Translations under genes and position numbers: made by a program | Part shown: positions 54,468 to 54,853 of the stretch, piece by piece | Numbering within the stretch: position 1 is the first letter of the stretch | How the letters are laid out: every line of letters begins with the position of its first letter | Assembly (NCBI GenBank): GCA_021850485.1 | Contig: JAJZLY010000008.1 | Coordinates: forward strand, 271,879-335,878 | Source: Bacillota bacterium | GTDB lineage: Bacteria; Bacillota; Sulfobacillia; JAJZYS01; JAJZLH01 | Reading direction: 5' to 3' | DNA: 64,000 nucleotides | The notes under the pieces: generated by a model | Seen by the model: the letters and a program-made list of their open reading frames with translations, nothing else | Databases searched by the model: none | What the model was told of the DNA's origin: nothing

Positions 54468-54616
54468 GCCATTCCCTCCTGCCTGATCAGCGCCAACTGT
54501 CTTGTCCCCGCTGCGGCCTAAACTCCCATTCCGCAATCAGCGCGCCCCTCCTTTCGCCTGCGCGTGCTACCATGACAGGGCACACGACAGGCACTTTCCG
54601 AGGAGGAATCGACCGG

Positions 54617-54853
54617 ATGACGATCACGATTCGTTACTGCACCGAATGAGGATATCTGGATGAGGCCGCCCGGGTGGCGGTCGAGATCTTGGACATGTTC
54701 GAGAACAAGATCCGCTCCCTGACCCTGACGCCGGGATTGAATGGGGTCTTCGAAATCACCTTGAATGAGCGGCAGATCTTTTCCAAAAAGGATACAGGTG
54801 AGTTCCCCGAACCCGGTGCCATCTCCCGGCTGATCGAAGAGCGCGCCCTCTAG
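54617..54853 (+). CDS. SelW-like (Rdx family) selenoprotein
   Basis: 78 residues if TGA (54647-54649) is read as selenocysteine. ATG 54617 has AGGAGG 10 bases upstream. The N-terminus is I-T-I-R-Y-C8-T-E-U11-G-Y-L, the C-x-x-U redox motif of SelW/SelT/SelH-type proteins, followed by E-A-A, the hydrophobic strands and a final helix (A-I-S-R-L-I-E-E) of the small thioredoxin-like Rdx fold. Length fits the family. A stable hairpin follows the TGA (54664-54682). If TGA were a stop the gene would end after ten residues while the rest of the frame stayed open and family-like. Likely a thiol-linked redox protein. Confidence 0.88.
54664..54682 (+). promoter_or_regulatory. Candidate bacterial SECIS hairpin (SelW-like gene)
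   Basis: GGCCGCC (54664-54670) pairs with GGCGGTC (54676-54682), seven pairs including one G-U, over the loop C-G-G-G-U. The loop G at 54672 is 23 bases after the UGA, inside the usual 16-37 base window for bacterial SECIS elements, which bind SelB. Confidence 0.6.

What the first reader, a model, noticed from the sequence alone, without database searches (positions are those of the whole stretch)
54617..54853. SelW-like (Rdx) selenoprotein with CxxU motif
A 78-codon frame with perfect AGGAGG has a single internal TGA, at position 11 in Y-C-x-x-U-G-Y, the exact Sec position of SelW/SelT/SelH-type proteins. The rest of the frame fits the Rdx fold. It would be missed by standard gene callers, which see no ORF here.
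Basis: partly seen in the sequence, partly recalled or inferred. Interest (0 to 1): 0.85.

Follow-up and report, generated by a model that had tools for sequence, protein, structure and literature searches.

The report
SelW-like selenoprotein gene with SECIS hairpin
A small bacterial redox protein is encoded here by a gene whose internal UGA "stop" codon is almost certainly read as the rare amino acid selenocysteine; the protein family is well known, so this is a solid, easily overlooked, but ordinary new member.

Summary
The 78-codon frame at 54617-54853 (+) has an AGGAGG, one in-frame TGA at codon 11 (54647-54649) and a TAG stop. With TGA read through it matches Pfam Rdx (1.2e-21) and NCBIfam CXXU_selWTH above its cut-off. 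The modelled fold matches solved SelW-related proteins. The genome has SelA, SelB, a SelD that itself carries an in-frame TGA, and tRNA-Sec. In the same class 52 of 53 homologous matches that cover the position have TGA there and one has Cys. A 5-bp hairpin with a G at loop position 2 starts 16 nt after the TGA; its third-codon-position pairs covary or are frozen, and it is degraded in 9 of 10 non-Sec homologues. This fits the published bacterial SECIS model. SelW-like CxxU selenoproteins are long known, including in Symbiobacterium, and one is experimentally read through in Campylobacter. Verdict: a real selenoprotein gene, new member of a known kind, low surprise. One side finding deserves follow-up: Sec-Rdx domains fused to DUF2703 beside ArsR and SBF-type genes in distant relatives.

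The parts
54601..54606 (+). Shine-Dalgarno AGGAGG, 10 nt before the ATG
   Evidence: read directly; purine-rich counterparts upstream in the relatives
54617..54853 (+). SelW-like (Rdx family) selenoprotein gene, 78 residues with U11, stop TAG
54638..54649 (+). CxxU redox motif (Cys8 codon TGC 54638-54640 to Sec11 codon TGA 54647-54649)
   Evidence: TGA at the aligned position in 52 of 53 class matches that cover it
54666..54680 (+). bSECIS-like hairpin: stem 54666-54670 with 54676-54680, loop CGGGU 54671-54675, invariant G at 54672 (two further pairs, 54664-54665 with 54681-54682, by folding of this sequence)

Best explanation
The frame is a functional selenoprotein gene of the SelW-like Rdx family. 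Ribosomes start at 54617 behind a strong Shine-Dalgarno site. At UGA 54647 the hairpin just downstream (54666-54680) recruits SelB with GTP and Sec-tRNA(Sec), so selenocysteine is inserted instead of termination (inferred from the known bSECIS and SelB mechanism). The 78-residue product folds as a small thioredoxin-like alpha/beta domain with Cys8 and Sec11 forming a CxxU redox centre. It most likely works as a small selenol/thiol oxidoreductase whose Se-S bond is recycled by cellular thiols (inferred from the family; substrate unknown). Shown here: frame, family, fold model, machinery, conservation of TGA and hairpin. Inferred: actual read-through, redox activity, partner.
For: Family across the TGA: Rdx 77.1 bits (cut-off 22.6), CXXU_selWTH 62 bits (cut-off 34.2). 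Fold: mean pLDDT 96; best PDB matches are SelW-related proteins, TM 0.91-0.92 by query, rmsd about 1 A. Machinery in the same genome: SelB 353 bits, SelA 487 bits, SelD 348 bits with its own in-frame TGA in SG*GCK, tRNA-Sec 72.7 bits and ARAGORN tRNA-SeC with anticodon tca. TGA kept in 15 of 15 hits among 41 relatives and in 52 of 53 position-covering class matches. Hairpin: complete 5-bp stem in 45 of 51 class Sec sequences and 14 of 18 outside the class, against 1 of 10 non-Sec homologues, and best of 363 possible 5-bp helices in the class set. Loop G invariant in 68 of 68; pairs of third codon positions covary with 0 of 2000 shuffles reaching the observed pairing, and in the class two third positions are fully frozen. 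Sec-Rdx genes track SelB (15 of 15 carriers, 14 of 26 others) and SelA (46 of 50 against 59 of 104).
Against: No expression, ribosome or mass-spectrometry data for this organism. Folding the 61-nt stretch around and after the TGA gives no unusual stability (z -0.39); only the short hairpin does (z -2.07, 7 of 200 shuffles). No promoter or terminator pattern was found. Four Sec-Rdx genomes have no SelA above the cut-off (G006, G013, G096, G100), perhaps because they are incomplete drafts. Shuffle and Fisher tests ignore relatedness.
Confidence: 0.96

Rival explanations
1. A pseudogene or sequencing error: a Cys codon (TGC/TGT) changed to TGA.
For: A one-base change would give it, and Cys homologues exist.
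Against: 52 of 53 class matches that cover the position have TGA; congeners at 70-81% identity keep an open frame with dN below dS after the TGA; the hairpin is conserved.
Confidence: 0.01
2. TGA is read as an ordinary amino acid (for example Trp) throughout the genome, or by a non-Sec suppressor.
For: The frame alone does not say which residue is inserted.
Against: 19 of the 52 longest non-overlapping mechanical ORFs of the window end in TGA; a tRNA-Sec with anticodon tca and the full Sec set are present; 9 of the 10 non-TGA homologues have Cys, one Arg, none Trp.
Confidence: 0.01
3. Two separate products: a 10-residue leader peptide ending at TGA and a separately started 59-aa protein from GTG 54674.
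For: The downstream frame is open with a GTG at 54674.
Against: The family profile runs across the TGA (residues 2-74); Cys8 and the first strand lie upstream of the TGA; the GTG codon lies within the hairpin and the fragment would lack the redox motif and first strand.
Confidence: 0.02

Closest known systems
Bacterial SelW-like (SELENOW-like) selenoproteins, Rdx family PF10262 / TIGR02174, CxxU
   Same: Sequence family, length, fold, CxxU with Sec at the same place, SECIS within the coding region with a G in the apical loop.
   Different: Only the organism; this protein is 41-48% identical to the relatives outside its genus in alignment A1.
Symbiobacterium thermophilum SelW-like selenoprotein (Zhang 2006, PMC1794560, Table 3; passages seen)
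   Same: Listed as a SelW-like selenoprotein. I believe genome G035 of this class is that organism, from its contig length of 3,566,135 bases (the identification is recalled, not verified).
   Different: 42-45% identical to the window's protein if G035 is that organism.
Campylobacter jejuni selW on CJnc60 (PMC11955535, passages seen)
   Same: About 80-aa SelW with one UGA read by tRNA-Sec, unannotated as a protein; read-through shown by ribosome profiling and proteomics.
   Different: A distant bacterium; the NCBIfam equivalog for that group (NF041051) scores 76.1, below its cut-off of 88.
Rdx proteins of known structure (PDB 3dex, 2oka, 2fa8, 2obk, 2ojl, 2p0g)
   Same: Sequence and fold.
   Different: This gene has TGA where the Cys homologues read have TGC or TGT; I did not inspect the PDB sequences residue by residue.

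Membership tests
SelW-like Rdx family (PF10262, TIGR02174) | Profile match above the curated cut-off | tested here: met
   77.1 against 22.6 bits; 62 against 34.2 bits
SelW-like Rdx family (PF10262, TIGR02174) | Thioredoxin-like Rdx fold | tested here: met
   AlphaFold2 model pLDDT 96, TM about 0.91 to SelW-related crystal structures
SelW-like Rdx family (PF10262, TIGR02174) | CxxU/CxxC after the first strand | tested here: met
   Cys8 and TGA11 after strand 2-8; both columns invariant as C/U in alignment A1
NF041051 SelTWH_Campy equivalog | Score above cut-off | tested here: not met
   76.1 against 88 bits
Bacterial selenoprotein gene | selA, selB, selD and tRNA-Sec in the genome | tested here: met
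Bacterial selenoprotein gene | bSECIS model as given in PMC13188914 (passage seen): 3-9 nt loop, 4-16 bp upper stem, G in the first two loop positions, 16-37 nt between UGA and loop, MFE at or below -7.5 kcal/mol | tested here: met
   Loop CGGGU of 5 nt with G at position 2, stem 7 bp by folding (5 conserved), 21 nt from UGA to loop, -12.9 kcal/mol; the program bSECISearch itself was not run
Bacterial selenoprotein gene | UGA position held by U or C in homologues | tested here: met
   52 TGA and 1 Cys of 53 position-covering class matches; outside the class 18 TGA, 1 Cys, 1 Arg of 20 read that cover it
Bacterial selenoprotein gene | Sec detected in the product | not testable with these tools
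   needs mass spectrometry or 75Se labelling

The most novel reading that the evidence does not exclude
The Sec-Rdx (CxxU) domain may serve metalloid or soft-metal thiol chemistry rather than general antioxidant reduction. In distant relatives of the same phylum it is fused to DUF2703 in genes lying beside ArsR-family regulators and SBF-family (Acr3-like) permeases, and in this class it is kept almost only in the Sec form. The stand-alone protein in the window would then be a housekeeping member of a selenol-based metalloid-handling or reductase family.
Probability: 0.1. Interest if true: 0.5.

Novelty: new member of a known kind. Interest (0 to 1): 0.25.

Why it matters
It shows that a short selenoprotein gene, which standard open-reading-frame rules truncate or miss, can be recognised from raw sequence and then confirmed from independent lines: machinery, conserved UGA, and a covarying hairpin whose signal sits in third codon positions. 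It does not change what is known about SelW-like proteins, whose bacterial function remains unknown.

Tried and rejected
Pseudogene, genome-wide TGA recoding and split-gene readings were tested and rejected. Folding energy alone was uninformative for the 61-nt stretch. Rfam at gathering thresholds found nothing in the window, so it gives no support for the hairpin. Promoter and terminator scans found nothing. dN/dS upstream of the TGA is not usable: only 10 codons, dS undefined in two of three pairs. The named-genome scan found only Cys forms because its pattern required a Cys codon; it cannot be used for Sec/Cys frequencies. I did not search the rest of the genome for further selenoproteins beyond SelD. 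The identity of the organism was not established.

Full report
Observation. The frame 54617-54853 on the + strand reads MTITIRYCTEUGYLDEAARVAVEILDMFENKIRSLTLTPGLNGVFEITLNERQIFSKKDTGEFPEPGAISRLIEERAL with TGA as U. AGGAGG lies 10 nt before the ATG. By the standard code only a fragment of this frame is open: 59 codons from GTG 54674.

Family and fold. With Cys standing for Sec, the protein matches Pfam Rdx (1.2e-21) across residues 2-74 and NCBIfam CXXU_selWTH above its cut-off; it stays below the cut-off of the Campylobacter equivalog. PDB sequence relatives are mostly bacterial proteins, two of them named as SelW-related. A model from 14 aligned homologues has mean pLDDT 96 and matches those structures at TM 0.91-0.92 by query and about 1 A, with mouse SelW lower (TM 0.65). 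It is the only Rdx match in its genome.

Machinery. The 1.61-Mb draft genome (97.2% complete) holds SelB, SelA, SelD with an in-frame TGA in the motif SG*GCK and tRNA-Sec (anticodon tca). TGA also serves as a stop: 19 of 52 long non-overlapping mechanical ORFs in the window end with it.

Conservation of the TGA. Among 41 relatives 15 have the gene, all with one TGA at this place. A profile search of 154 genomes of the class gave 55 matches in 51 genomes. I read all 55: two are fragments at contig ends that do not cover the position, 52 have TGA there, one distant match (G076) has Cys. In 398 genomes drawn from the phylum, 32 matched, nine of them class members already counted. Of the 23 others I read 21: 18 TGA, one Cys (G493), one Arg codon CGA (G296), one fragment; G247 (one in-frame TGA by the table) and G216 (weak, none) were not read. 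Seven Cys loci came from named genomes, but that scan demanded Cys. In the two congeners both neighbours are also kept: an amidohydrolase upstream on the other strand and a YCF48/BNR-repeat protein downstream.

Co-occurrence. SelB above cut-off is present in 15 of 15 carriers and 14 of the other 26 relatives (Fisher p 0.0014). In the class SelA is present in 46 of 50 genomes with the Sec form and 59 of the other 104 (p 5.6e-6). These tests treat related genomes as independent. The four carriers without SelA above cut-off are G006 (a fragment at a contig end), G013, G096 and G100; of these, G006 and G013 do have SelB above cut-off, the other two were not tested for it. Counts were read off the tables by eye.

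The hairpin. Sixty-nine TGA sequences (51 class, 18 outside; one class duplicate dropped) were compared without gaps over the 60 bases from the TGA. Of 363 possible 5-bp helices the one at offsets 19-23 with 29-33 is best in the class set: complete in 45 of 51 class sequences, 14 of 18 outside, and 1 of 10 homologues without TGA. That one is the Arg-codon sequence G296, which could be a recent change from TGA. Offsets 20/32 and 23/29 are third codon positions on both sides. They pair in 63 and 67 of 68 distinct 60-mers, against 45.7 and 60.4 in shuffles (0 of 2000 reached), using C-G, G-C and T-A types (and A-T at 20/32). Within the class the third positions at 23 and 29 never vary, while the third positions outside the stem carry 0.9-2 bits of entropy. 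Pair 21/31 switches in the class between G-C and A-T through amino acid changes on both sides (Ala/Thr with Ala/Val). The second loop base is G in 68 of 68. Two pairs, 19/33 and within the class 23/29, do not vary enough to test. The hairpin meets the bSECIS constraints printed in PMC13188914 (passage); the minimal hairpin of this gene folds at -12.9 kcal/mol. The 61-nt context is not unusually stable.

What is known. SelW-like selenoproteins with CxxU were the most abundant family in the Sargasso Sea set (PMC1088965, passages). They were listed for Symbiobacterium thermophilum, with the remark that SelW-like proteins have few Cys forms in Sec-using organisms (PMC1794560, passages). SelW genes missed by annotation, and SECIS covariation over several selenoprotein families, were described for epsilonproteobacteria (PMC4607533, passages). 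Read-through of C. jejuni selW was shown by ribosome profiling and proteomics (PMC11955535, passages). The 2026 review lists the family under PF10262, CxxU, as predicted with high confidence (PMC13188914, passages). A search for Thermaerobacter with selenoprotein gave one unrelated paper (listing).

Verdict. A real selenoprotein gene and a new member of a known kind. The function of bacterial SelW-like proteins stays open; a thiol/selenol oxidoreductase is the likeliest role, by family inference.

Noticed in passing
L084, L085, L087, L088, L090 (genomes G470, G309, G163, G357, G333); L086 (G296): The Sec-Rdx domain is the N-terminal part of an open frame of about 270-320 residues whose C-terminal part is DUF2703 (Pfam-checked in L084, L085 and L086, by eye in the others), with a bSECIS-like hairpin. 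ArsR-family regulators (L085, L086, L088) and SBF-family permeases resembling Acr3 (L084, L088) lie beside it. Searches of DUF2703 with selen and of SelW-like with arsenic listed no paper on such a fusion; NCBIfam's DF family (seleno)protein model matches the DUF2703 part below its cut-off.
   Followed up: partly
L086 (genome G296): The Rdx-DUF2703 gene has CGA (Arg) exactly where relatives have TGA, yet keeps a complete hairpin; possibly a recent loss of Sec or a sequencing error.
   Followed up: no
L091 and L102 (genomes G134, G135): Two Sec-Rdx genes in tandem, their TGAs about 315 bases apart, both with TGA and hairpin.
   Followed up: no
L026 (window genome contig C20:57266-58189): SelD is itself interrupted by TGA in SG*GCK, so it is probably a selenoprotein, directly next to selA.
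   Followed up: partly
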